From an uncultured Clostridium sp. (GTDB taxonomy: Bacteria > Bacillota > Clostridia > TANB77 > CAG-508): a DNA stretch of 32,280 nucleotides. The notes beneath the pieces were generated by a model that saw only the letters and a list, made by a program, of their open reading frames with translations, was not told the origin of the DNA and made no database searches. The stretch is from the NCBI GenBank assembly GCA_946409935.1, contig CAMJYG010000026.1, forward strand, positions 1-32,280. The letters run 5' to 3'. Made by a program: the position numbers and the translations under genes. This document shows positions 3,917 to 31,962 of this stretch, piece by piece (position 1 is the first letter of the stretch; each line of letters begins with the position of its first letter).

Positions 3917-4120
3917 GTTACAGTTCAGTAACAATATATCTAGAAGTCCGCGCCAGTGATTAGTTATAAAAATTTTGTAATGGCTCGGGGGAACCGTTCA
4001 ATGATTTACAAAAGTTTGAAGAACTTTTGGCTAAATCATTAGAATGGGGAGAATGAAAAAATTTTTATAACTAATCACGATTAAGCAGGACAATGAATTT
4101 TTAAGTTACTGAACTGTAAC
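3917..4120. repeat. Dispersed palindromic element, copy 1
   Basis: A 204-bp non-coding element lies between two glycan genes and fills this gap. It has perfect 16-bp terminal inverted repeats, GTTACAGTTCAGTAAC at 3917-3932 and its complement at 4105-4120. Inside there is a 20-bp perfect stem (GTGATTAGTTATAAAAATTT, 3954-3973, with its complement ending near 4079). This is flanked by an asymmetric loop and a short GTCC/GGAC helix. In the apical part a further hairpin pairs AATGATTTA with TAAATCATT and contains AAAAGTT/AACTTTT. The interior is nearly identical to the element at 8934-9136. No target duplication is visible here. Confidence 0.85.
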
Positions 4121-4136
4121 ACAACTGTAGTGCGAG

Positions 4137-5093
4137 TTATACCATCGAAAATATCACAGCATAAATTCCAAACATAGTTTTATTTATTGTTTTTAAATAT
4201 AAATCTTTTAATGTCTTATTTTTCTTTAGCACCTCATTCTTTTTCCAATTAGGAAATGTTGTATTTACTTTTTCCCAAGTTTCAGTTAATAATTTATCTT
4301 TTAATTCTTCATTTGATATTTTTATTATTCTCAAAAAAGAGCTACAAAAAGCATATCTTACATATACATATTCCAACTGCTGTTTAAATTCTTCATATAT
4401 ATTTTTTTCTTTATAGAAATTAACTACATGTTCCAAAACATCAAATATTTCTCTTGTCCTTTCATTTTGTAAATTTGAAATAGAGCCTTCTCTTTGTATA
4501 TAATGAATACATGCTTTTTTACAAAAAGAAACTTTTTCTATAAATGGTATTAATTTATATGTAAACTCCACATCTTCATATCTATAACCTTTTGGAAATT
4601 CAATATTTGATTTTTCTAAAATTTCTCTTTTTATTAATTTATTCCATGCAACAACTCTTATTTTTTCTAGCATTTCTTTTTTTCCATCGTAATATTTACC
4701 AACATCTATTTTCTTTTTATTTGGATACTCCCATATAAAGTCACATTCAACTAAGTCACTATCTTCTTTTTTAGCTAATTCATACATAATTTCATACATG
4801 TCTTTTTCTACATAATCATCTGAATCTAAAAAAGCAATATATTCGCCTTTTGCGTATTTCATTCCAAAGTTTCTTGCATCTGAAAGACCACCATTTTCTT
4901 TTTCTACATATACTATTTTATTAGGATATTGTTCTATAAATCTCTTAACAATGTCTATACTTCTATCTTTAGATCCATCATTTACTAATATTATCTCAAT
5001 TTGATCTAGTGTCTGGTTTACTAATGTTTCTAAACATTTTTCTATATAACCTTCTACATTATAAAACGGCACTATTACACTTACCTTAGGCAT
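4137..5093 (-). CDS. GT2 family glycosyltransferase
   Basis: A 318-residue GT-A glycosyltransferase. The N-terminus VSVIVPFYNVEGYIEKCLETL is followed by VNDGSKD (37-43), NGGLSDARNFG (about 68-78), and the metal-binding FLDSDDY (about 88-94). Farther on, WNKLIKREIL and YRYEDVEF match the acceptor-side region of WaaB/EpsJ-like GT2 enzymes, where the ED pair is the likely general base. It is expected to work at the inner membrane face on a lipid-linked glycan; the sugar is not predictable. AGAAGGGAA precedes the ATG. It lies 74 bp below the next GT2 gene in the same direction; the palindromic element at 3917-4120 follows its stop codon. Confidence 0.9.
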   Translation of the reverse strand: MPKVSVIVPFYNVEGYIEKCLETLVNQTLDQIEIILVNDGSKDRSIDIVKRFIEQYPNKIVYVEKENGGLSDARNFGMKYAKGEYIAFLDSDDYVEKDMYEIMYELAKKEDSDLVECDFIWEYPNKKKIDVGKYYDGKKEMLEKIRVVAWNKLIKREILEKSNIEFPKGYRYEDVEFTYKLIPFIEKVSFCKKACIHYIQREGSISNLQNERTREIFDVLEHVVNFYKEKNIYEEFKQQLEYVYVRYAFCSSFLRIIKISNEELKDKLLTETWEKVNTTFPNWKKNEVLKKNKTLKDLYLKTINKTMFGIYAVIFSMV

Positions 5094-5129
5094 TTAAAAT
5101 CTCATTCCCTTCTCATTTGACTATTTAAA

Positions 5130-5143
5130 GTTACAAGTCAGCC
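5130..5143. repeat. Isolated end of the palindromic element
   Basis: GTTACAAGTCAGCC lies between two GT2 genes. It matches the terminal repeat of the 8934, 13107 and 24152 elements (GTTACTRGTCAGCC) at all but one or two positions. No matching right end or core follows, so this looks like a remnant or a chance partial match. Confidence 0.35.
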
Positions 5144-5167
5144 AGATTTAGTTGTATAACCCTAAAC

Positions 5168-6112
5168 CTACCTCATTTTTAAATAAAGTTTAATATTTAA
5201 CTTTAAAATTATCTTTTTAAATAACTGTTTAATATTTCTAGCTTTTATATTTTTTGATATATTTCTTTGTTTTAATTGTTTGATATATTTATCTCTGTCT
5301 TCATTTTTTAAATCATACCATTTTAATATTATAACATTTGTATAATATATTATAGCATTTTCCTTCGTTTTTTTACTTAAATTCATTTTGTCAATTTCTT
5401 TTATAGCATTATCATAATGCCATAAAGTATCTTCTATTTTTTTTAGTGTTTTATTATAATCCTCATTTCTTGTAATGCTATTTTCAACTTGTATATAATT
5501 ATACAAATAAAAAGGTGTTGATATAAAAGTTTTTGATTTCAAAATCAACAATGGCATTAAGCCATAATCTTCATGATATGTTCTTTGAAATTTAAAATTA
5601 TTTTCTAAGAATAAATTTCTTTTTATTAAATAAATACATGGCGAATCAATTAATATATCTGTATAATATAATTTATTAAATGCCTCTTCTCCGCTACACT
5701 TTTCGAAAACGGGACCTTCATTTTTTTCTATAAATTGACCATTTTCTGCTTTTTTTTGTAGTTTAAATTTAATCATATCAATATTTTCATTAATATATGG
5801 CATCAATTTTTCAACCAGGTTGCTTTCTATATAATCATCTGAATCTACAAATAAGACATAATCCGCTTGCGCTTTTTCAATTCCAAAATTTCTTGTTGCC
5901 GCTACTCCTTCATTTTCTTTAGAGTAATATTTAATCAAATCTTTGTATTTTTCTTTATATTCATATATTATTTTTTCAGAATTATCTGTTGAACCATCAT
6001 TAACTATAATTATTTCAATATCTTTTATTGTTTGATTTACTAAAGAATCTAAACATTTCTTTATTTCTTTTTCCGTATTATATACTGGAACTATAATACT
6101 AATTTTACTCAA
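5168..6112 (-). CDS. GT2 family glycosyltransferase
   Basis: A 314-residue GT-A enzyme starting at TTG 6112, chosen because AGAAAGGA lies 8 nt upstream and the frame opens directly into ISIIVPVYNTEKEIKKCLDSL. Motifs: VNDGSTDNS (about 37-45), NEGVAATRNFG, and the metal-binding FVDSDDYIE. An acceptor-side YHEDYGLMP gives the usual ED pair. The C-terminal ~60 residues are lysine-rich and basic, consistent with peripheral membrane attachment. It is a close paralogue of the neighbouring GT2 at 4137-5093. Donor and acceptor are unknown. Confidence 0.9.
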   Translation of the reverse strand: MSKISIIVPVYNTEKEIKKCLDSLVNQTIKDIEIIIVNDGSTDNSEKIIYEYKEKYKDLIKYYSKENEGVAATRNFGIEKAQADYVLFVDSDDYIESNLVEKLMPYINENIDMIKFKLQKKAENGQFIEKNEGPVFEKCSGEEAFNKLYYTDILIDSPCIYLIKRNLFLENNFKFQRTYHEDYGLMPLLILKSKTFISTPFYLYNYIQVENSITRNEDYNKTLKKIEDTLWHYDNAIKEIDKMNLSKKTKENAIIYYTNVIILKWYDLKNEDRDKYIKQLKQRNISKNIKARNIKQLFKKIILKLNIKLYLKMR

Positions 6113-6187
6113 TTTTACTGTCCTTTCTTCCTTACTTTGTTATGGATTAGTCATAATTAATTTGAAGTCGTTTCATTTACTTTCACT

Positions 6188-7270
6188 TTAGTCAAGGATA
6201 ATTTTTTCTAATTTTTCTATTATTGCATTATTATACTCTTCTGAATTAAAATAATTTTTTATTTGATATCCTTCTTTAATAAACAGTTTCATCTTTTCAT
6301 AAATATCCTCAACTTCTTTTGTTGTTACATATCCATACTTTCCTTCTACTTCTTGATAATCAGATACTTTTGTGGTTATTATTGGTTTGTTTAATACAAA
6401 ACATTCTAAAAAAAACACAGGATATCCTTCATAGTCTGATGTTGAAATTGCACAATCTGATATTTTAAAATAAGGATATGGATTTTTTTGCTTTCCTAAG
6501 AATATAATATCTTCCATCAAATTATAGTCATTTACCATATTTTTATATTTTAATGTGTCTTCACCATCTCCAATTAGTAATACTTTAAAATTAAAACCAT
6601 CATCTTTTAGTTTTTTAGCTGCTTCTATAATTCTACTTATTTTCTTTTGCTTTTCATCATGCCTAGATACATTCAAAAAAGTGATTCTATTATCTTTCTT
6701 TAATTCAATTTTTTCATTAGACATTTTTAGTATTTTATCATTATCAATTATATTATTACATACTTTAGTTTTTTCTTTCATCTCTGGAAAAACCTTTATA
6801 AAACTTTCTTTTCCCTCATTTGAAACAAAAATAATATGCCTAAATTTATTATATCTTCTTTCTTCAAAAAAACTTTTCATCTTTTCTTCATTATTTTCAA
6901 ACAATGTCAAATAGTCTGCATGTCCCCATAATGCCGTATTTTTTGAAGCAACTCTACTTACAAAAGACGATGGTAATGAATATGTTGCAAAACATGCTGA
7001 AAAATCAAATTTATTTTTATATTGTAATATGAATTTAATTCTTTTATATAAATTTACAATTTTTCTTTTTAAGATATTTGTGCTTTCATTTGGTGCATAT
7101 TCAATAACCTTAATTTTATTATTTAACTCTTTTAGAAAAATTCCTTGTTTTTTTTCAAGTACAATTGTTATATCATATCCTTTTTCTTGCAATGTATTTG
7201 TTAATGTAATTAATGCTTTTTCTATTCCCCCTAAGTCTAAGGAATATGCAGCAAATAATAATTTTTTCAA
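6188..7270 (-). CDS. GT4 family (GT-B fold) glycosyltransferase
   Basis: A 360-residue GT-B enzyme, MKKLLFAAYSLDLGGIEKAL at the N-terminus. It has a Rossmann-type donor domain in the second half (IGDGEDTLKYKNMV, LGKQKNPYPYFKISD) and the E-x7-E motif SDYEGYPVFFLE. The start is set at TTG 7270. A perfect GGAGG sits 5 nt upstream of this TTG, and it is formed by the last two glycine codons of cmk. An upstream TTG at 7282 would place that ribosome binding site inside the gene. Translation is therefore probably coupled to cmk. It is the intact paralogue of the frameshifted gene at 1237-2356. Confidence 0.88.
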   Translation of the reverse strand: MKKLLFAAYSLDLGGIEKALITLTNTLQEKGYDITIVLEKKQGIFLKELNNKIKVIEYAPNESTNILKRKIVNLYKRIKFILQYKNKFDFSACFATYSLPSSFVSRVASKNTALWGHADYLTLFENNEEKMKSFFEERRYNKFRHIIFVSNEGKESFIKVFPEMKEKTKVCNNIIDNDKILKMSNEKIELKKDNRITFLNVSRHDEKQKKISRIIEAAKKLKDDGFNFKVLLIGDGEDTLKYKNMVNDYNLMEDIIFLGKQKNPYPYFKISDCAISTSDYEGYPVFFLECFVLNKPIITTKVSDYQEVEGKYGYVTTKEVEDIYEKMKLFIKEGYQIKNYFNSEEYNNAIIEKLEKIILD

Positions 7271-7271
7271 A

Positions 7272-7928
7272 TTAACCTCCAATTTGTATTATACTAATAA
7301 TTTTATTTTTTACTTCTTCAATTGTCATATTGCTTGAATCTATATATATAGCATCTTCTGCTTTCTTTAGTGGTGCTATTTCTCTGCTAGAATCTCTTTT
7401 ATCCCTATCTATTATATTTTTTAAAACTTCTTCATACGATGTTTCTATTCCTTTCTCTTCATTTTGCTTTACCCTTCTTTTAGCTCTTTCTTCTGGAGTA
7501 GCATCTAAATATATTTTTACATCCGCATTAGGAAACACTACTGTTCCAATATCTCTTCCTTCCATAATAACTTTTTTTCCTTTTGCTATGTTTCTTTGAA
7601 TCTCTAACAGTTTATCTCTTACAACTTTCAATACAGAAATTGGAGAAACTAAATTATTTACATCATTTTCTCTAATTCTTTTAGTTACTTCTTCTCCATT
7701 TAAAAATATTTTTCCATCTTCTCGCATCTCTATATTTATTTTTTTCAATATTTCCTCTATCTTATCTTCTTCTTCGATTTTTATATTTTCTTGAATCATA
7801 TTTAAAGCAACACATCTAAAAGTTGCTCCTGTATCTATATATACTAACCCTAATTCTTCTCCAACAAGTTTTGTTATAGTTCCTTTACCACTACCTGCTG
7901 GTCCATCTATTGCAACAACAAATGACAT
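7272..7928 (-). CDS. cmk: Cytidylate kinase
   Basis: It phosphorylates CMP and dCMP to the diphosphates in pyrimidine nucleotide salvage and supply. The 218-residue protein has the P-loop GPAGSGKGT (residues 9-17), ITKLVGEELGLVYIDTGATFR, the LID-side EGRDIGTVVFP, arginine-rich ATPEERAKRRVKQ, and the late RDSSREIAPLKKAEDAIYIDSS typical of Cmk. The ATG at 7928 is chosen over an upstream in-frame ATG at 7961 because AGAAAGGGAG lies 7 nt before it and family members begin at this point. The gene sits between a P-loop/Asp23-like gene and a glycosyltransferase whose ribosome binding site overlaps its 3' end. Confidence 0.95.
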   Translation of the reverse strand: MSFVVAIDGPAGSGKGTITKLVGEELGLVYIDTGATFRCVALNMIQENIKIEEEDKIEEILKKINIEMREDGKIFLNGEEVTKRIRENDVNNLVSPISVLKVVRDKLLEIQRNIAKGKKVIMEGRDIGTVVFPNADVKIYLDATPEERAKRRVKQNEEKGIETSYEEVLKNIIDRDKRDSSREIAPLKKAEDAIYIDSSNMTIEEVKNKIISIIQIGG

Positions 7929-7968
7929 AATAAAACTCCCTTTCTCTCTGAAATTTGCCAATTATCTT

Positions 7969-8838
7969 TCAAACTTTCTCTGGCACATAAATATTCTTAG
8001 CAACCACTTCCAATTCCACAACATTCATTGCAGTAAGCTTTTCTATTTCTTTTTTCGATTTTTCCTTAAAAGATTTTAAGCCGTCTACAACATTATATCC
8101 ATACACAATTGTTACTTCCATATACAAATTTACGCCATCACCATAATTTTCAACTCTTGTTTTTACTATTTTATAAATTGCTGGTGTTTGAGCTGCTAAA
8201 TATTCTAATATTTGTCTAAATACTTGATCTGAAATTGTAAAATTCCCCATATAACTAAATGTTGGACGTATAATAGATTTTTCTGATATGTATGGTTTTT
8301 GACCTTTTCCTTTTGATTTAAAAATTTGTAAAGGGTCTAATAAATACCCTGAAAAATCTTTTTTTATTTCAAAAGTTGGCACAGGTATTACATGCTTTCC
8401 CTCTGTTACCCTTATTCTTCTTGCTGTTTCCATTTCTTGAGGTGTTGCAACATCTGTTATATATACTGTTTCTGATATTTCTGGTAATCCCAAATTTGCA
8501 GCAATCTTTTGAACCATTCCATCAGATGTACCTAAAATTAAAATACTTTGTGGTTTATACTTTTTAAAGGCCTTAATTATTTCCTCTTTTTCATTATCAT
8601 CATAAAAAAGTGCATGCTTTACAGTAGCCACCTTTGTTGGTGCTTTTTTAGCAGATGACCCTGCAATAACTTCATTATCTTTTATTAATAATCCATCATC
8701 AATAATAAAATGCGTATCTTTTTCTCCTGCAACCATTTGAGCTCTGTAACTCTTGCCAGTTCCAGAAGGTCCTACAAAAGCATATACTTTAATTTTATTT
8801 GCAAATGGTAAAATATCTTTAATGTCTTTTAATAACAC
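7969..8838 (-). CDS. P-loop ATPase with Asp23/Gls24-like C-terminal domain
   Basis: A 289-residue protein from a GTG start with AAGGAGG upstream. Residues ~18-31 are a Walker A strand and loop (VYAFVGPSGTGKSYR). FIIDDGLLIKDNEV gives a following acidic pair, and SILILGTSDGMVQKIA looks like a second nucleotide-binding strand. The last ~75 residues (VKTRVENYGDGVNLYMEVTI, then YGYNVVDGLKSFKEKSKKEI) have the pattern of the Asp23/Gls24 envelope-stress domain, including VVELEVVAKNIYVP at the end. The fusion of an ATPase with an Asp23-like domain suggests a membrane- or envelope-associated role. The exact function is unknown to me. Confidence 0.65.
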   Translation of the reverse strand: MLLKDIKDILPFANKIKVYAFVGPSGTGKSYRAQMVAGEKDTHFIIDDGLLIKDNEVIAGSSAKKAPTKVATVKHALFYDDNEKEEIIKAFKKYKPQSILILGTSDGMVQKIAANLGLPEISETVYITDVATPQEMETARRIRVTEGKHVIPVPTFEIKKDFSGYLLDPLQIFKSKGKGQKPYISEKSIIRPTFSYMGNFTISDQVFRQILEYLAAQTPAIYKIVKTRVENYGDGVNLYMEVTIVYGYNVVDGLKSFKEKSKKEIEKLTAMNVVELEVVAKNIYVPEKV

Positions 8839-8877
8839 TTTTTTATTCGCCTCCTTTTAAAAAAAACTTTCTTATTC

Positions 8878-9175
8878 AAAACCTAATATATAAATAATTT
8901 ATGAAATGATCAAATCTGTGCATTAAACCGAGGGGTACTGGTCAGCCATGAATAATTAGAAGTCCGCGCGAGTGATTAGTTATAAAAAATTTTGTAATGG
9001 CTCGGGGGGACCGTTCAATGATTTACAAAAGTTCGGAGAACTTTTGGCTAAATCATTAGAATGGGGAGAATGAAAAAAATTTTTATAACTAATCACGGTT
9101 AAGCAGGACAACGGAATTATAAGGCTGACTAGTAACAACCGAGGAATAATATAAATTATTTATATATTAGGTTTT
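8878..9175. other. Large AT-rich palindrome interrupted by an inserted element
   Basis: Positions 8878-8902 and 9151-9175 are perfect 25-bp inverted complements. Between them sit short spacers and the palindromic element at 8934-9136. Without the insert the two arms would form one strong hairpin in the gap between rlmN and the P-loop gene, and the last bases (TTTT) make it terminator-like. The gap of about 360 bp holds nothing else. The element therefore landed in the loop of a pre-existing terminator-like hairpin. Confidence 0.75.
8934..9136. mobile_element. Dispersed palindromic element, copy 2, with target duplication
   Basis: A 203-bp element with imperfect 14-bp terminal inverted repeats (GGTACTGGTCAGCC on the left, GGCTGACTAGTAAC on the right). 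It is flanked by an 8-bp direct repeat, AACCGAGG, at 8926-8933 and 9137-9144. The interior matches copy 1 almost base for base, including the GTGATTAGTTATAAAA stem, the GTCCGCGCGA/GGTTAAGCAGGAC internal loop and the apical AAAAGTTC/GAACTTTT hairpin. It has no coding capacity. The direct repeat is what a transposase-mobilised non-autonomous element (MITE) would leave. The complex conserved fold is more than a MITE normally needs. Confidence 0.8.
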
Positions 9176-9198
9176 TAATACAAATTATTTTTCAAATT

Positions 9199-13005: not shown

Positions 13006-13024
13006 TTTTAATCATATTCCTTTT

Positions 13025-13104
13025 TTTATTGCCTACATTTTACTATAAAAATAATAAAAAGGCAAGACGTAAATCTTGCCTTTTGTTATTCGTATATTTG
13101 TAGG
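13025..13104 (-). repeat. Terminator-promoter module, copy 1
   Basis: About 80 bp nearly identical to 14962-15040. It consists of a terminator hairpin (AAAAGGCAAG-acgtaaat-CTTGCCTTTT, 13057-13084) whose arm supplies the -35 box of a promoter. Just before the hairpin on the minus strand one reads L-Q-I-Y-E-stop, close to the P-Q-I-L-E-stop that ends the surface-protein fragment at 15022. So this copy carries the last codons of a lost paralogue. Confidence 0.7.
13037..13065 (-). promoter_or_regulatory. SigA-type promoter for the hydrolase-acyltransferase-DUF6320 set
   Basis: On the minus strand TTGCCT (13065-13060), a 17-nt spacer and TAAAAT (13042-13037) form a good vegetative promoter. The -35 box is built from the 3' arm of the preceding terminator hairpin, so termination and re-initiation are fused. 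The first ATG downstream is the alpha/beta hydrolase at 13005. Confidence 0.6.
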
Positions 13105-13106
13105 TT

Positions 13107-13176
13107 GTTACTGGTCAGCCATTTATAACTAATCACGGTTAAGCAGGACAATGAAATTTTAAGGCTGACTAGTGAC
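13107..13176. repeat. Dispersed palindromic element, copy 3 (internal deletion)
   Basis: The left end GTTACTGGTCAGCC (13107-13120) is followed at once by the right half of the core (TTATAACTAATCACGG, then TTAAGCAGGACAATG) and the right end GGCTGACTAGTGAC (13163-13176). The left arm of the main stem and the apical hairpin seen in copies 1 and 2 are missing. It sits between the AAA-ATPase stop codon and the terminator-promoter module. Confidence 0.8.
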
Positions 13177-13178
13177 AA

Positions 13179-14867
13179 TTATTCTCCTATTATTTCAGAA
13201 TAAATATTATCTACAACTGCTACTATACTATATTTTTTTAAATTATCTACATTTTTTATTTCTTCATATTCACAATATCTTTTAATTTGCTCTCTAGCTT
13301 CTTTTTGTCTTTCTTTTAATTTGTCTGCTTCATCTTTCTTTAAATATTTAAATTCTATCATTATTGAATAATATCCTTTGCCTTGTTGTCTTGGTATTAG
13401 TAATAAATCTGGATATTCTCTTTCAACTTCATATTCTGATTTTATCCAATATGCATTTTTTAAATTCATTACTATTGAATAAAATAGCACTTTTACATAT
13501 TTCTCATCAAATTTTTGGTAATCTCTATTTGATAAATTTTTTAAATATTCTTTTAACACTTCTATTACTTTATCTATTTTTCCTTCAAAAGCCAATTCTT
13601 GTGCCATTATACTATAATTTATTCTGTCTATTCTAAATTCTATATTCTTTTCTACACTTTCTAGAAAATACTCTGCATATAATTCTTTCATTACTTTATT
13701 TGGAATTTTTAATTCCGGTGTTCCTAATACTTCGTTTGATATTGTTAAATATCCTAAATAGAATAACATTGATATTAATTCTTGGTCTCCAAATTCTATT
13801 TCTGGATTAAATTTATCTATTATAGGCATTACTATTCCTTTTCCTAAAATTGTTTGTTCAATTATGTTCTTTGATTGCTCTCCTTGACATATTTGTAGCA
13901 TTTTTGATAGTTTAGCATAATCACTTGCTATATTTACATCTATTAAACTTTCTGGAAGCCTACCTATTCCTATATAATCTGATAATAAATATAAGCACAT
14001 ATTAGCATTATACATATGTATTTTACTTCCGATTGAAAACTTATATCCATCATAGTTTTCTTGCATTGTTGGTAATAGCTTATCTTGTTCCTCTTTTGAA
14101 ATTTCTTGTTCATCCATTAGTTCTATAACTTCATCTTTTGTAAATCCTGCCATTTCGTTAAATCTTTGATCTCTTGTTATGTCTTTCGATATATTAAATC
14201 CAGATGTTAAGCTATCTAATGTTATTGGTGCTACTCCTGTTATAAATATTCTATTTACTACTGTTTCTGTTCCTTTTTTTAGAATTTCATACCATTTACG
14301 TACTTTACCATTTTTTGATACTAAATTTTTAAATTGCTCTGTATGAAAACTTAATAGTTCATTTGCGAAATGGTCATATTCATCTATTATTACATATATT
14401 TTTTGATTTGGTTTTTGAAGTGAAAATGCCGTAAATATACTATTTAATATCTCTTCTGCTTCTTGTGATTCATTTATATAAAAATCAATATTATATTTTC
14501 CTACAAAATATTTTATAGATTCTATTACAGTTGCCTTAAATCCACCTATTGTTTTTTCTAATGAATTTGTATCTATCCCTGAAAAATTGAATTTCAATAT
14601 GTGATAACTATTTTTTTGTTCTGTTGGATTTTTACCTATATACGTATCTTTAAAAAGTTTATCAAATTTTTCCGTCTTTAATATATCATAATAATTTTCA
14701 AGAACGCTTGTAAATAATGTTTTTCCAAATTTTCGTGGTCTTAAAAACATTATTCTTTTATCATCTAAGCTTTCTAGTTTTTCTATATATTTAGTTTTAT
14801 CTACATAGTAATACCCTTCTTCTACTAACTCTTCATAATTACTTATTCCTTTTGGCAATCTCTTCAT
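13179..14867 (-). CDS. AAA-ATPase/PD-(D/E)XK nuclease-like protein (PF09820/PF08011 type)
   Basis: A 562-residue protein starting MKRLPKGISNYEELVEEGYYYVDKT in this start choice. The N-terminal AAA-ATPase_like domain shows the diagnostic Walker A variant FLRPRKFGKTLF, Walker B VIIDEYDHF and the sensor region FITGVAPITLD. The C-terminal ~120 residues (EVEREYPDLLLIPRQ, YYSIMIEFKYLKK) match the DUF1703 PD-(D/E)XK nuclease core, with D and E-x-K in place. These proteins are common in gut anaerobes, often in multiple copies; their role is not settled. The start at 14867 is chosen because GAGAGGA lies 12 nt before it, the same spacing as murI and ychF. An ATG at 14879 is too close to the site. Confidence 0.85.
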   Translation of the reverse strand: MKRLPKGISNYEELVEEGYYYVDKTKYIEKLESLDDKRIMFLRPRKFGKTLFTSVLENYYDILKTEKFDKLFKDTYIGKNPTEQKNSYHILKFNFSGIDTNSLEKTIGGFKATVIESIKYFVGKYNIDFYINESQEAEEILNSIFTAFSLQKPNQKIYVIIDEYDHFANELLSFHTEQFKNLVSKNGKVRKWYEILKKGTETVVNRIFITGVAPITLDSLTSGFNISKDITRDQRFNEMAGFTKDEVIELMDEQEISKEEQDKLLPTMQENYDGYKFSIGSKIHMYNANMCLYLLSDYIGIGRLPESLIDVNIASDYAKLSKMLQICQGEQSKNIIEQTILGKGIVMPIIDKFNPEIEFGDQELISMLFYLGYLTISNEVLGTPELKIPNKVMKELYAEYFLESVEKNIEFRIDRINYSIMAQELAFEGKIDKVIEVLKEYLKNLSNRDYQKFDEKYVKVLFYSIVMNLKNAYWIKSEYEVEREYPDLLLIPRQQGKGYYSIMIEFKYLKKDEADKLKERQKEAREQIKRYCEYEEIKNVDNLKKYSIVAVVDNIYSEIIGE

Positions 14868-14961
14868 TTTTACCATCATTCCTCTCTAAAATGAATAAAT
14901 CTAGATAAAAAAAAATAAAATTTTAACGATGCTATATTTAAAAATGCTTGGTCTCTTTTAT

Positions 14962-15040
14962 TTATTGCCTATATTCTACTATAAAAAAAATAAAAAGGCA
15001 AGACGTAAATCTTGCCTTTTGTTATTCTAATATTTGAGGT
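14962..15040 (-). repeat. Terminator-promoter module, copy 2
   Basis: The second copy of the module at 13025-13104. The hairpin AAAAGGCAAG-acgtaaat-CTTGCCTTTT (14993-15020) directly follows the stop codon of the surface-protein fragment at 15022. On the minus strand it is followed by TTGCCT (15001-14996), 17 nt, TAGAAT (14978-14973), which probably drives the AAA-ATPase gene at 14867. Confidence 0.7.
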
Positions 15041-15555
15041 AGAAAATCAGATTTTAGGCATACTATCGGACAAATACCCCAATTTGAAGAAACAGGATAA
15101 TTTCCTCCCGAAGTTAATCGTCCATAACAATCTAACGCACCACTCTTACACCTACACAATGAATTATTTTCTCCCGCATTGGGTGACGCAAACCACATAA
15201 AAAACAAATTTCCCGTGTATTCTCCTGGTCCATACATTCTATTATACCCCATATTATCAACTGTTTTCCAGTTTGTCGAATTACCCGGAGCATAGATACC
15301 TTCGACTAATTCTCCTCCGATTGTATAAATGTATCCTCTTCCTCCTTGCCAATTCCAGCTACCATTACTATACTGCTCATTACTATAATCAATATATATT
15401 GCTTCTAGCTTTTCTCCATTATTATTATTAACTGTATGAGTAACTTGATTATATGATTCTAGAAACATTTCTATACTTGGTGTTGCAATTGCATACTCAG
15501 CAAGTATATATCTTAAAGATAAATTTTCTATTTTTTTACCAAAAATACTGTGCAA
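15022..15555 (-). pseudogene. C-terminal fragment of a surface/pilin-like protein
   Basis: 177 residues can be read, but only from a TTG (15555) with no ribosome binding site and no signal peptide. The sequence is glycine-, asparagine- and tyrosine-rich (NGSWNWQGGRGYIYTIGGEL) and ends MWFASPNAGENN ... WGICPIVCLKSDFLPQILE. That ending is the (L)ASP...RPIVCLKSD pattern found at the C-termini of clostridial surface and prepilin-type proteins. The N-terminal helix and signal are missing. The break coincides with the left end of a 65-bp structured repeat (15548-15613), suggesting truncation at that repeat. A terminator follows the stop directly. Confidence 0.55.
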
Positions 15556-15613
15556 CGCTTAAGGCAAAATCCTTTTTATATAATAAGGAAGTCATCCTTT
15601 CCTATTGTATAAA
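15548..15613. repeat. Two-hairpin structured repeat, copy A
   Basis: The order is CTGTGCAACGC, then AAGG-caaaat-CCTT plus a T tract, then a hairpin pairing TATATAATAAGG with CCTATTGTATA. The same order occurs at 22159-22223 and, inverted, at 22980-23040, with different but still pairing stems. It fills the gap between dnaJ and the surface-protein fragment. Confidence 0.6.
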
Positions 15614-15668
15614 AATTATATATTAACTTGAAGCAATGCAAAATTAGCTGTGAATTGTAACAAAATTT

Positions 15669-22031: not shown

Positions 22032-22250
22032 AACAAATCGGAAAGTTAATAAACTTGTAGTATGTTATTTTAAACTATAAATTCTAATTAATAACAAATT
22101 ATAAATAGTAAAACTTTCCGTAAATTTGTTCTGTGCGAATTTTTTTGCAAAAAAAATTCTGTGCAACGCATAGAGCGAAGCTCTTTTTATACAATAGGGA
22201 AGTATAACTTTCCTATTGTATAACAAATCGGAAAGTTAATAAAATTGTAG
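22032..22250. repeat. Direct and inverted repeat block upstream of murI
   Basis: This block occupies most of the 21977-22309 gap. AACAAATCGGAAAGTTAATA begins both at 22032 and at 22222 (direct repeat of about 28 bp, then TTGTAG). Its inverted form AACTTTCCG-TAAATTTGTT lies at 22112-22130. Between them are a GAATTTTTTTGC/GCAAAAAAAATTC hairpin and the two-hairpin repeat copy B. No gene is visible. Confidence 0.6.
22159..22223. repeat. Two-hairpin structured repeat, copy B
   Basis: CTGTGCAACGC, then AGAGC-gaa-GCTCT followed by TTTTTA, then TATACAATAGG ... CCTATTGTATA with GAAGT/ACTTT inside. Both stems pair perfectly although their sequences differ from copies A and C. Confidence 0.6.
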
Positions 22251-22930: not shown

Positions 22931-22979
22931 AAAAAAATCATTCCTTTCTTACCTTAATCTGATATAAAAGCCTTACATT

Positions 22980-23040
22980 TTTTATAAAATAGGAACATGA
23001 TTCTTTCCCATTTTATAAAAAGATCTTCGCTCTATGCAAT
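22980..23040. repeat. Two-hairpin structured repeat, copy C (inverted)
   Basis: Read on the minus strand: TTGCATAGAGCGAAGATCTT, a T tract, then TTTTATAAAATGGGAA ... TTCCTATTTTATAAAA. This is the same order of parts as copies A and B, with the long stem kept by paired changes. The 5' CTGTGC part is lost. Confidence 0.55.
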
Positions 23041-24113: not shown

Positions 24114-24151
24114 TACTTTTTTAAAATTTTTTATTTTCATAGTTACTGTTC

Positions 24152-24414
24152 GGTTACTAGTCAGCCATATCAAATTATAAGTCTGCACAAGCGATTACTA
24201 TATAAATATCTTGAGAATTAATCGAATGCGACTGGAATAACTTAAGAAATCTTAATAATTTCGAAAGGGAATCTCAAAGCTTGTCTTTGAGGGTGCTTTC
24301 GAAATTAATTAGATTTTTTTAGGGTTAAATGTAAGGTAGCCGAGATTATTCGAAAAATATTTATATAGTAATCACATTAAGCGAGACAACAGTATTTTAA
24401 GGCTGACTAGTAAC
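24152..24414. repeat. Dispersed palindromic element, copy 4 (divergent core)
   Basis: A 263-bp element with terminal repeats GTTACTAGTCAGCC (from 24153) and GGCTGACTAGTAAC (24401-24414). Outside these is a further perfect pair, GTTACTGTT (24142-24150) and AACAGTAAC (24423-24431). Inside, GATTACTATATAAATAT pairs with ATATTTATATAGTAATC. It is bordered by the same asymmetric loop type (GTCTGCACAAG / CATTAAGCGAGAC) as copies 1 and 2. An apical hairpin (TTTCGAAAG, CTCAAAG-cttgt-CTTTGAG, CTTTCGAAA) has a different sequence but the same position. No gene is present between ychF and tRNA-Gly. Confidence 0.8.
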
Positions 24415-24432
24415 ATTGTGTAAACAGTAACA

Positions 24433-29523: not shown

Positions 29524-29595
29524 GGAAAGTAAATATAAAATTTTCTGGTTATTTGCTAATACTATTAAAGTTATTAGATTTTTTAATAAAATCGT

Positions 29596-29624
29596 TTGCT
29601 TTTTGGGTAAAAATATGCTAATAT
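29596..29624 (+). promoter_or_regulatory. Promoter of Abi small RNA 1
   Basis: TTGCTT (29596-29601), 17 nt, TAATAT (29619-29624), with TGC directly before the -10 (extended -10). The same arrangement occurs at 30988-31016. Confidence 0.75.
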
Positions 29625-29630
29625 ATATAT

Positions 29631-29675
29631 GAGTGGTGCTCAAGAAACTTTCGAAGCCTTGAGTCATTTTTTATA
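29631..29675 (+). ncRNA. Abi-associated small hairpin RNA, copy 1
   Basis: The predicted start is G29631. A stem GCTCAAG/CTTGAGT encloses AAACTTTCGAAGC, which itself can fold as CTT-tcg-AAG. It ends in TCATTTTTTATA, a terminator-like T run, 16 nt before the ATG of the Abi_2-type pseudogene. It is nearly identical to copy 2 apart from paired stem changes. Confidence 0.65.
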
Positions 29676-30910: not shown

Positions 30911-30987
30911 GAATTATGAAATTTTGTTTTTTGATGTAAAATTATGTGACTGGAAAGTGAAAATGTCTTAAAAAATTTAAAAAACAC

Positions 30988-31016
30988 TTGTTTTTTTATC
31001 AGAATTATGCTAATAT
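30988..31016 (+). promoter_or_regulatory. Promoter of Abi small RNA 2
   Basis: TTGTTT (30988-30993), 17 nt ending TGC, TAATAT (31011-31016). Spacer length and extended -10 match the promoter at 29596. Confidence 0.75.
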
Positions 31017-31022
31017 ATATAT

Positions 31023-31066
31023 GAGCGGTATCCAAGAAACTTTCGAAGCCTTGGGTCATTTTTTAT
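31023..31066 (+). ncRNA. Abi-associated small hairpin RNA, copy 2
   Basis: The predicted start is G31023. The stem ATCCAAG/CTTGGGT encloses the same loop AAACTTTCGAAGC as copy 1 and is followed by CATTTTTTATA. The stem differs from copy 1 at paired positions (TC..GA to CC..GG), so base pairing is kept. It ends about 20 nt before the intact Abi_2 gene. Confidence 0.7.
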
Positions 31067-31086
31067 ATAAGAGGTGAGTTCGGTTA

Positions 31087-31962
31087 ATGAAAGAGTATAT
31101 GACTAATAATGAATTAATTGATTATTTATCTTCAAAAGGTGTAATTATTGAAAATAAAGACAATGCTATACAAAAAATTGAAAGATATACATATTATTCA
31201 ATAGTTAATACATATAAATTGATTTTCAAGGATAAAAATGGTAATTATATTGATAATGTAACATTTGATGAAATATATGCTTTGTTTGAATTTGATAAAA
31301 ATCTAAAAAATATAATATTAAAAAACTGTTTAGAAATAGAAACCGTAATAAAATCAATTATGGCAAATCAAATTTCAAAAGTATATGGTGTAAAAGGATA
31401 TTTGAAAACTTCTAATTGGGATAGTAGCATTGATAATGATATAAAAGAAAACTTATTTGAGAAAATTAATAATGAAATTCAAAAAGATTATAATACTCAT
31501 ACAGCTGTAACTCATTATATAGACAAATATGGATTTGTTCCACCATTTGTTTTAGTTAAGATTCTGACATTTGGTGTTGCAAGTAGTTATTATGGTTTAC
31601 TTAGGCAAAGTGATAGACAGGCTATTGCAAAGTATTTTAAGATATCAGATAAGTTATTAAAACAAATATTAAAGAATTTAACAACAATAAGGAATGTAGC
31701 AGCTCATTCAGATAGATTATATAATTATACAAGTAAATTTTATCTTTCTTTTAAATTAATAGATAAAAACTATGTAAAATCTGATAATATAACTAATTTA
31801 TATATGGTAATAAGATGTATGGAAAAATTATTAACTAAAGAACAATATGAGGATTTATATAATTCTATACTAAAAGAAGTAGAAGTATTGAACAAAAAAC
31901 TAAAGTCTATAAATATATCTAAAGTTTTAAAAATAATGGGCTTTCCAATGAATAATGATTAG
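31087..31962 (+). CDS. Abi_2 family (AbiD/AbiF-type) abortive-infection HEPN protein
   Basis: A 291-residue protein behind GAGGTGAG. It opens MKEYMTNNELIDYLSSKGVII, typical of Abi_2 proteins. It continues with IERYTYYSIVNTYKLIF and IYALFEFDKNLKNIILKNCLEIETVIKSIMA, and carries the HEPN ribonuclease motif RNVAAH in LTTIRNVAAHSDRLYNY (about residues 204-209). Family members abort phage infection by cleaving RNA; AbiF-type proteins have been linked to an adjacent noncoding RNA and to the ancestry of Cas13. Here a small RNA with its own promoter lies directly upstream and could act as antitoxin. The gene appears complete and is followed by a third RNA copy and a terminator. Confidence 0.85.
   Translation: MKEYMTNNELIDYLSSKGVIIENKDNAIQKIERYTYYSIVNTYKLIFKDKNGNYIDNVTFDEIYALFEFDKNLKNIILKNCLEIETVIKSIMANQISKVYGVKGYLKTSNWDSSIDNDIKENLFEKINNEIQKDYNTHTAVTHYIDKYGFVPPFVLVKILTFGVASSYYGLLRQSDRQAIAKYFKISDKLLKQILKNLTTIRNVAAHSDRLYNYTSKFYLSFKLIDKNYVKSDNITNLYMVIRCMEKLLTKEQYEDLYNSILKEVEVLNKKLKSINISKVLKIMGFPMNND

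What the first reader, a model, noticed from the sequence alone, without database searches (positions are those of the whole stretch)
3917..9136. Dispersed palindromic element family with an RNA-like conserved fold
Elements at 3917-4120 and 8934-9136 (relatives at 13107 and 24152) share more than terminal repeats. They keep an outer stem whose sequence differs between copies while pairing is kept: GTTACAGTTCAG in one, GTTACTGGTCAGCC in others, each matched by its own right end. Next comes a GTC(C/T)GC/GC(R)GGAC helix, an asymmetric loop (about 4 versus 5-6 nt, right side NTTAA), a 15-20 bp stem beginning GATTA, and an apical hairpin. A plain MITE needs only its ends. Conserved internal loops and compensatory change suggest a functional structured RNA or a hairpin DNA substrate that moves between genes. 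I cannot match it to a named family.
Basis: partly seen in the sequence, partly recalled or inferred. Interest (0 to 1): 0.82.

Follow-up and report, generated by a model that had tools for sequence, protein, structure and literature searches.

The report
Mobile, flipping DNA hairpins in Clostridia
A family of short mobile DNA palindromes in uncultured gut Clostridia keeps a conserved folded centre while its arms change in matched pairs and the centre flips in place, probably because the DNA is copied across its own hairpin, so the matched changes need not mean a working RNA.

Summary
The elements at 3917-4120 and 8934-9136 belong to a multicopy family with ordinary MITE ends: 8-bp target duplications are perfect in 11 of 36 copies examined and 7/8 in 8 more. 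The inside is unusual. A roughly 75-nt centre recurs in other species and a second genus, while the arms around it differ between copies yet pair. Covariation is extreme: 34 of 46 pairs change on both sides. No Rfam family reaches its threshold. But the inner stems lack wobble: 7 G.T and 5 A.C in 3151 cells, against 24 and 0 in 297 for tRNAs on the same loci. At orthologous sites arms change in matched pairs and the centre is inverted in 8 of 20 comparisons. Both are reported signatures of polymerase template switching between inverted repeats. Best reading: a mobile palindrome whose arms are copied from each other during replication. The conserved asymmetric centre, a second centre in the same ends, and a look-alike in phage contigs remain unexplained; a folded DNA or RNA signal is possible. 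New variant of a known kind.

The parts
3917..4120 (+). full element, type B ends (GTTACAGTTCAGTAAC ... GTTACTGAACTGTAAC), centre 1; no target duplication seen (5 of 8 bases match)
3949..4083 (+). centre 1 with inner stem (covariance model R1, 123.4 bits)
8926..8933 (.). left target duplication AACCGAGG
8934..9136 (+). full element, type A ends (GGTACTGGTCAGCC ... GGCTGACTAGTAAC), centre 1
8966..9100 (+). centre 1 with inner stem (R1, 119.7 bits; the opposite strand scores 30.9; the copy is among the sequences R1 was built from)
9137..9144 (.). right target duplication AACCGAGG
13107..13176 (+). short copy: type A ends and right half, centre absent; read as a deletion derivative (inference); no target duplication seen (2 of 8)
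24153..24414 (+). element with type A ends and a different structured centre (centre 2); no target duplication seen (4 of 8)

Best explanation
A family of non-autonomous mobile DNA palindromes (MITE type). Shown: in this genome many copies carry terminal inverted repeats and 8-bp target duplications; in the empty sites printed no matching hairpin is present; the centre is conserved in sequence and asymmetric fold while arms differ and pair; arms change in matched pairs and the centre is inverted at orthologous sites; copies without the centre are common. Inferred: after insertion the single-stranded palindrome folds during replication and the polymerase switches template between the arms. That copies one arm onto the other (matched changes with few wobble intermediates), sometimes inverts the spacer, and sometimes deletes it between short repeats. 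Inferred, less sure: the unpaired parts of the centre are kept because moving copies need them as a folded DNA (or RNA) signal; at a given site they drift about as fast as the surroundings.
For: MITE ends: 8-bp flanking repeat perfect in 11 and 7/8 in 8 of 36 copies, against 1 and 6 of 1260 mismatched pairs. Empty sites: 9 of 24 candidate pairs were printed; none has a matching hairpin by eye, L119/L132 being the cleanest. Conserved centre: 12 of 287 genomes of the order, reversed control 0. Inner stems: WC 3057, GT 7, AC 5 of 3151 cells in 136 elements, against tRNA GT 24, AC 0 of 297 (14 tRNAs). Orthologous sites: 8 of 20 clostridial comparisons (7 sites) have the centre inverted, exact reverse complement of the 62-nt core in L027/L176 and L037/L172, plus G706 at one more site. 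In 17 of those comparisons, 385 stem pairs: 342 unchanged, 24 changed on both arms (22 WC to WC), 19 on one arm; independent arms would give about 3 doubles (my arithmetic). G731 holds a core-less hairpin with a matched A-T to G-C difference. Of 14 short copies, 12 join at TATAAC-like repeats, at slightly different points. Template switching homogenises inverted-repeat arms and inverts spacers (PMC8604942, start of abstract in the listing; PMC8794818, passages).
Against: Internal loops and a recurrent G.U in the centre persist, although template switching could erase them; this needs selection that I did not show directly. A looser count that runs on through the internal loops gave GT 89, AC 61 (112 elements), a mild wobble excess; the strict count stops at double mismatches, which favours clean helices, and its commonest mismatches are A.G 42 and C.T 20. 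TIR-less copies show no target duplication at the stem base (46 copies: 7 repeats of 5-6 nt, about 4.9 of 5 nt or more expected), so how they move is unknown. No partner end was found in 20 one-sided stretches beside type B ends (ORFs not scanned). The strand is biased: 68 antisense versus 26 sense to both neighbouring genes, which simple flipping does not explain. The core-less matched change rests on one site. The genomes are metagenome assemblies (the own one 8% contaminated), so flips lack read-level proof.
Confidence: 0.66

Rival explanations
1. A functional structured RNA (small RNA, ribozyme or protein-binding RNA) carried by a mobile element; selection on base pairing makes the covariation.
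For: Extreme covariation; asymmetric internal loops, a bulged A and a 2-nt bulge kept across two genera; a G.U in 56 of 63 sequences at one pair (its T is partly fixed by the search pattern); a mild GT excess in the loose count (89 to 61); R1 scores the G-rich strand 120 bits and the other 31; a similar hairpin in a conserved stretch of phage contigs.
Against: Inner stems have no wobble excess (7 GT, 5 AC of 3151; tRNA control 24 and 0 of 297). The centre is inverted or missing at orthologous sites. The G-rich strand is more often antisense to neighbouring genes. Loops at a site drift like the flanks: 266 of 289 positions identical, mean flank identity about 91%.
Confidence: 0.2
2. A plain MITE: the centre has no function and looks conserved only because each genome's copies are young relatives of one source.
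For: TIRs with 8-bp duplications; copies of 66-112 nt without the centre have perfect duplications (L233, L234, L236, L240, L243); two different centres occur in the same ends. The exact search pattern inflates apparent loop conservation.
Against: The centre recurs in a second genus without these ends, with different apical stems but similar loops. Short copies look like separate in-place deletions rather than one moving short form.
Confidence: 0.25
3. A hairpin moved as single-stranded DNA (IS200/IS605-, REP- or integron-like), the folded centre being the enzyme's substrate.
For: Asymmetric bulged hairpin conserved on one strand; strand bias, 62 to 27 against the majority gene strand of the locus; no target duplication at the stem base of 46 TIR-less copies.
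Against: Many copies with intact ends have 8-bp duplications, as DDE transposases make (recalled); no partner enzyme identified.
Confidence: 0.12
4. The centre inserts into the tips of pre-existing hairpins such as terminators.
For: The same centre sits in many unrelated stems; a core-less hairpin lies at one orthologous site (G731).
Against: Empty sites printed have no matching hairpin (L119/L132 and eight others; G249 at site 3 and G731 at site 1); core-less copies in this genome fit deletion.
Confidence: 0.06

Closest known systems
MITEs (non-autonomous DDE transposon derivatives)
   Same: Short, no ORF, multicopy, terminal inverted repeats, 8-bp target duplication in this genome.
   Different: Conserved folded centre found with other ends in other genomes; whole-length palindrome; arms change in matched pairs; centre inverted in place; no autonomous partner found.
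bcr repeats of the Bacillus cereus group and other stem-loop repeat families (Efa-1, ERIC, Rpe)
   Same: Intergenic repeats that fold; PMC3446304 calls bcr1-3 MITE-like and bcr10/18 predicted RNA elements (passages); PMC2267715 lists such families, including Bcr1 and families in two Clostridium species (passages).
   Different: No sequence comparison with these families was made. The conserved-centre, variable-arm layout and in-place inversion were not in the passages I saw.
Repetitive hairpin-forming elements of mitochondria (double-hairpin elements, sponge RHE)
   Same: Mobile hairpins in intergenic DNA; PMC2800124 notes 'few complementary substitutions' in the sponge elements (passages).
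   Different: Organelle elements; for the sponge elements described there the stems are conserved and the loops differ, the reverse of here.
Template-switch mutation at hairpins
   Same: Arm homogenisation and spacer inversion (PMC8604942, start of abstract; PMC8794818, passages).
   Different: In PMC8794818 Table 1 compensatory change with loop inversion is counted 6 times in rRNA histories; here several sites of one family show both, with spacers of 60 nt or more.

Membership tests
MITE | terminal inverted repeats | tested here: met
   type A and B ends, many copies
MITE | target-site duplication | tested here: met
   8 bp, 11 perfect and 8 at 7/8 of 36; the other 17 match at 6 or fewer of 8. 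No excess in 46 TIR-less copies elsewhere
MITE | ends shared with an autonomous element | tested here: inconclusive
   no convincing partner end in 20 one-sided stretches of 3-4.5 kb; ORFs not scanned
MITE | no own transposase | tested here: met
   no listed ORF of 80 aa or more overlaps the four window copies
Known Rfam family | match at the family's threshold | tested here: not met
   only two tRNAs in the window at gathering scores. In 20 loci at E up to 5, one element (L024) matches a microRNA model on both strands at 40 and 38 bits against a threshold of 90
Structured RNA with pairing kept by selection on RNA | G.U pairs tolerated well above A.C | tested here: not met
   inner stems 7 GT and 5 AC of 3151; tRNA 24 and 0 of 297. 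A looser count gave 89 and 61
Structured RNA with pairing kept by selection on RNA | significant covariation | tested here: met
Structured RNA with pairing kept by selection on RNA | discrete transcript | not testable with these tools
   no RNA-seq
Template-switch (quasipalindrome) mutation | matched changes in both arms | tested here: met
   24 of 43 changed pairs in 17 comparisons
Template-switch (quasipalindrome) mutation | spacer inversion | tested here: met
   8 of 20 comparisons
IS200/IS605 or REP-type hairpin | no target duplication (recalled) | tested here: not met
   8-bp duplications in copies with TIRs
bcr1 | sequence relation | not tested
   named from papers only

The most novel reading that the evidence does not exclude
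The centre is a new class of folded RNA (or single-stranded DNA) module, perhaps a ribozyme or protein-binding hairpin. It travels in mobile palindromes of gut Clostridia and also sits inside a large (about 700-nt) apparently non-coding region of podophage-like contigs, while DNA template switching, not RNA selection, keeps its stems paired.
Probability: 0.18. Interest if true: 0.85.

Novelty: new variant of a known kind. Interest (0 to 1): 0.62.

Why it matters
Covariation is widely taken as proof that an RNA structure is functional. Here a very strong covariation signal comes with stems nearly free of wobble, matched in-place changes and loop inversions, which points to a DNA copying process. 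If confirmed, this family is a natural laboratory for template switching in bacteria and a warning for covariation-based RNA discovery, with a simple check (G.U against A.C, and spacer inversion). The conserved centre that survives this process is a separate, open puzzle.

Tried and rejected
Rfam at gathering and E-value thresholds: nothing at threshold for the element. R1 over 398 genomes of the phylum: only the own genome (strict filters). BLAST of the phage stretch against INPHARED: no match. Search for an autonomous partner by paired type B ends: none. Target duplication at the stem base of TIR-less copies: near control. Insertion at the tip of existing hairpins: disfavoured by empty sites.

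Selections and rows dropped. Of 77 non-redundant sequences, 63 went into A1. The 14 left out were near-duplicates (L002, L012, L082, L092, L106, L116, L150, L164, L168, L172), two whose right arm does not pair (L015, L159; leaving them out raises the percentage paired) and two phage sequences (L183, L184). Loci were fetched by patterns that fix GGGGACC, TTC and (T)AGAATGGGG, so invariance there is partly built in; BLAST-found loci are free of that. One search tested the empty sites for the centre on one strand only, so its list of 24 holds at least one inverted copy (L036/L118); the 9 printed were judged by eye. One search used a wrong motif and was redone; the pair list was spoiled by element-only matches and redone with elements masked. 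Three of the 20 orthologous comparisons (with L148, L178) may be independent insertions; with them the totals are 46 double (44 WC to WC) and 19 single of 455 pairs. L037 appears in two of the eight flips. The 36 elements were chosen for having both ends visible.
Full report
What is there. The own genome, a 2.1-Mb assembly in 88 contigs (97% complete, 8% contaminated), has 63 BLAST matches, 14 of them near full length. Two kinds of ends occur: type A (GTTACTRGTCAGCC; 92 sites within 2 mismatches, reversed control 0) and type B (GTTACAGTTCAGT; 81 sites within 1 mismatch, control 1). Of 36 copies with both ends visible, 11 have a perfect 8-bp flanking repeat and 8 have 7 of 8; mismatched pairs gave 1 and 6 of 1260. 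The 8934 copy is flanked by AACCGAGG on both sides; the other three window copies show no duplication. So the ends are those of a MITE.

What is unusual. The 203-nt query matched 5 of 35 relatives besides the own genome, almost only in its middle, roughly positions 40-160. There the middle sits in long stems of different sequence. A pattern for the centre occurs in 12 of 287 genomes of the order, in 2 of 45 genera, up to 18 places per genome (overlapping matches included), with 0 in the reversed control. An R1 search of 398 genomes of the phylum found only the own genome. The family is therefore patchy and, as far as sampled, narrow.

Anatomy. Over 63 sequences (alignment A1) the centre reads: stem, TTTTG, a loop with a 2-bp helix, GTGGGGA, CCGTTC, an apical stem with a 2-nt 3' bulge, a bulged A, GAATGG, GGATAACG, stem. 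RNAalifold gives 46 pairs, 34 with double-sided changes. Observed 94.2% of cells paired and covariation 0.430, against 76.3% and 0.121 in shuffles (0 of 500 reach it) and at most 54.7% and 0.099 when slid. Even one pair of the 2-bp helix alternates G-C (27) and A-U (25). Pattern-fetched loci fix part of the core letters, as told in Tried and rejected.

RNA or DNA. If pairing were selected in an RNA, G.U intermediates should be common and A.C rare on that strand. In 136 elements the inner stem (mean 23 bp) has 3057 Watson-Crick cells, 7 G.T and 5 A.C of 3151; other mismatches are A.G 42, C.T 20 and fewer of the rest; the apical stem has 1330 Watson-Crick cells and 5 mismatches, none G.T. Fourteen distinct tRNAs on the same loci have 273 Watson-Crick, 24 G.T and 0 A.C. 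In the stem columns of A1, G.U and A.C are about equal (my sum: 22 and 20). A looser count through the internal loops gave G.T 89 and A.C 61, a mild excess that I attribute to the loops. The finder stops at double mismatches, so absolute rates are low by design, but G.T and A.C are treated alike. On balance the inner stems behave like a DNA palindrome.

In-place evolution. With elements masked, flank BLAST found 20 clostridial comparisons of elements at the same site; in 8, at 7 sites, the centre is inverted relative to the flanks. In L027/L176 and L037/L172 the 62-nt core is the exact reverse complement while flanks run through. In 17 comparisons (three possibly independent insertions set aside) 342 of 385 stem pairs are unchanged, 24 changed on both arms (22 from one Watson-Crick pair to another) and 19 on one arm. 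About 3 doubles would be expected if arms changed independently (my arithmetic). Loop positions outside the search pattern are 266 of 289 identical, close to the flanks (about 91%, my mean), so there is no clear constraint at the site. In a second genus, one site has the centre inverted in G706, another has a core-less hairpin in G731 with a matched A-T to G-C difference from G298, and G725 (site 1) and G706 (site 2) look like deletions.

Insertion and loss. Empty sites such as L132 for L119 lack the whole palindrome; 9 of 24 candidate pairs were printed and none has a matching hairpin by eye, so the hairpin moves as a unit. Of 14 short copies (66-79 nt, including 13107-13176), 12 join a left end to the right half at TATAAC-like repeats at slightly different points and 2 elsewhere. 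That is what deletion across a hairpin would give, so they do not prove that a short form moves.

Mechanism. Template switching between inverted-repeat arms is reported to homogenise arms and invert the spacer (PMC8604942, start of abstract seen in the listing). PMC8794818 (passages) proposes it as a maker and keeper of RNA hairpins, and counts compensatory change with loop inversion 6 times in rRNA histories. The present family shows arm matching, inversion and apparent deletion together. I therefore infer replication across a folded palindrome as the process that keeps the arms paired. What keeps the asymmetric centre conserved between species is not shown; since sites lose or invert it, I place the selection on the moving lineage, with the centre as a folded signal for mobility (inference).

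Open ends. (1) A second centre, at 24153-24414, shares the same ends and recurs in 7 of 238 genomes of the order (own included) and 3 of 40 genera; how two centres come to sit in the same ends is not known. (2) The G-rich strand is antisense to both neighbouring genes in 68 cases, sense in 26, divergent 21, convergent 10; 4 lie in predicted ORFs and 17 at edges; the antisense majority appears in all six groups of loci. (3) Three IMG/VR contigs of two lineages carry the motif in a conserved, apparently non-coding stretch (short ORFs overlap it). L184 has terminase and head-tail adaptor genes by PHROGs and L183 similar ORFs by eye. R1 scores are 41.7 and 32.7 bits. They were picked by the pattern; if the collection is of the order of 5e10 bases (assumed), about one chance match is expected, so this is a lead only. 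(4) The transposase is unknown.

Known or new. Stem-loop repeat families and MITE-like bcr repeats are known (PMC2267715, PMC3446304, passages), as are mobile hairpins of mitochondria (PMC2800124, passages). The results listed by my searches did not show this family, or a mobile element described by arm homogenisation plus spacer inversion; the lists were short (1-14 rows each, three of them cut) and cover open-licence papers only. I rate it a new variant of a known kind.

Noticed in passing
L183:7700-8750 and L184 (same stretch, minus strand): About 700 nt between divergent gene blocks is conserved between two podophage-like lineages; apparently non-coding (short ORFs overlap it); no Rfam match at threshold; it contains the GGGGACCGTTC...GAATGGGG hairpin. 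Possibly a large phage RNA.
   Followed up: partly
window 24190-24380: Second structured centre (centre 2) in the same MITE ends; found in 7 of 238 genomes of the order, 3 of 40 genera.
   Followed up: partly
window 8861-8902 and 9151-9192: 42-nt inverted arms, 86% complementary, enclose the 8934 element and its target duplication: it seems to have inserted inside an older palindrome.
   Followed up: no
window 24142-24152 and 24425-24431: Further GTTACTGTTCG / CAGTAAC-like ends lie just outside the 24153 element, as if one element were nested in another.
   Followed up: no
window 29588-29675 and 30980-31067: Two 88-nt copies (83% identical), each upstream of an Abi_2 gene (about 29.7-30.3 kb, apparently interrupted, and 31087-31962; Pfam PF07751). 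May be leader RNAs of an AbiF-like system; no convincing Rfam match.
   Followed up: partly
window 13018-13100 and 14954-15036: 83-nt direct repeats (92%) with a terminator-like hairpin flank an AAA-ATPase_like/PDDEXK_9 gene (13179-14879).
   Followed up: no
window 15531-15615, 22142-22226, 22977-23037: Another dispersed repeat family with inverted copies (D7, I2, I5).
   Followed up: no
L223 (G725, site 3): An orthologous element keeps the centre's base but has a different apical hairpin, as if the tip had been replaced.
   Followed up: no
L057:322-422: Another near-perfect palindrome that matches microRNA models, on both strands for one of them, below threshold.
   Followed up: no
loci: The G-rich strand of the centre is antisense to both flanking genes 68 times and sense 26 times, in all six groups of loci; cause unknown.
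   Followed up: partly
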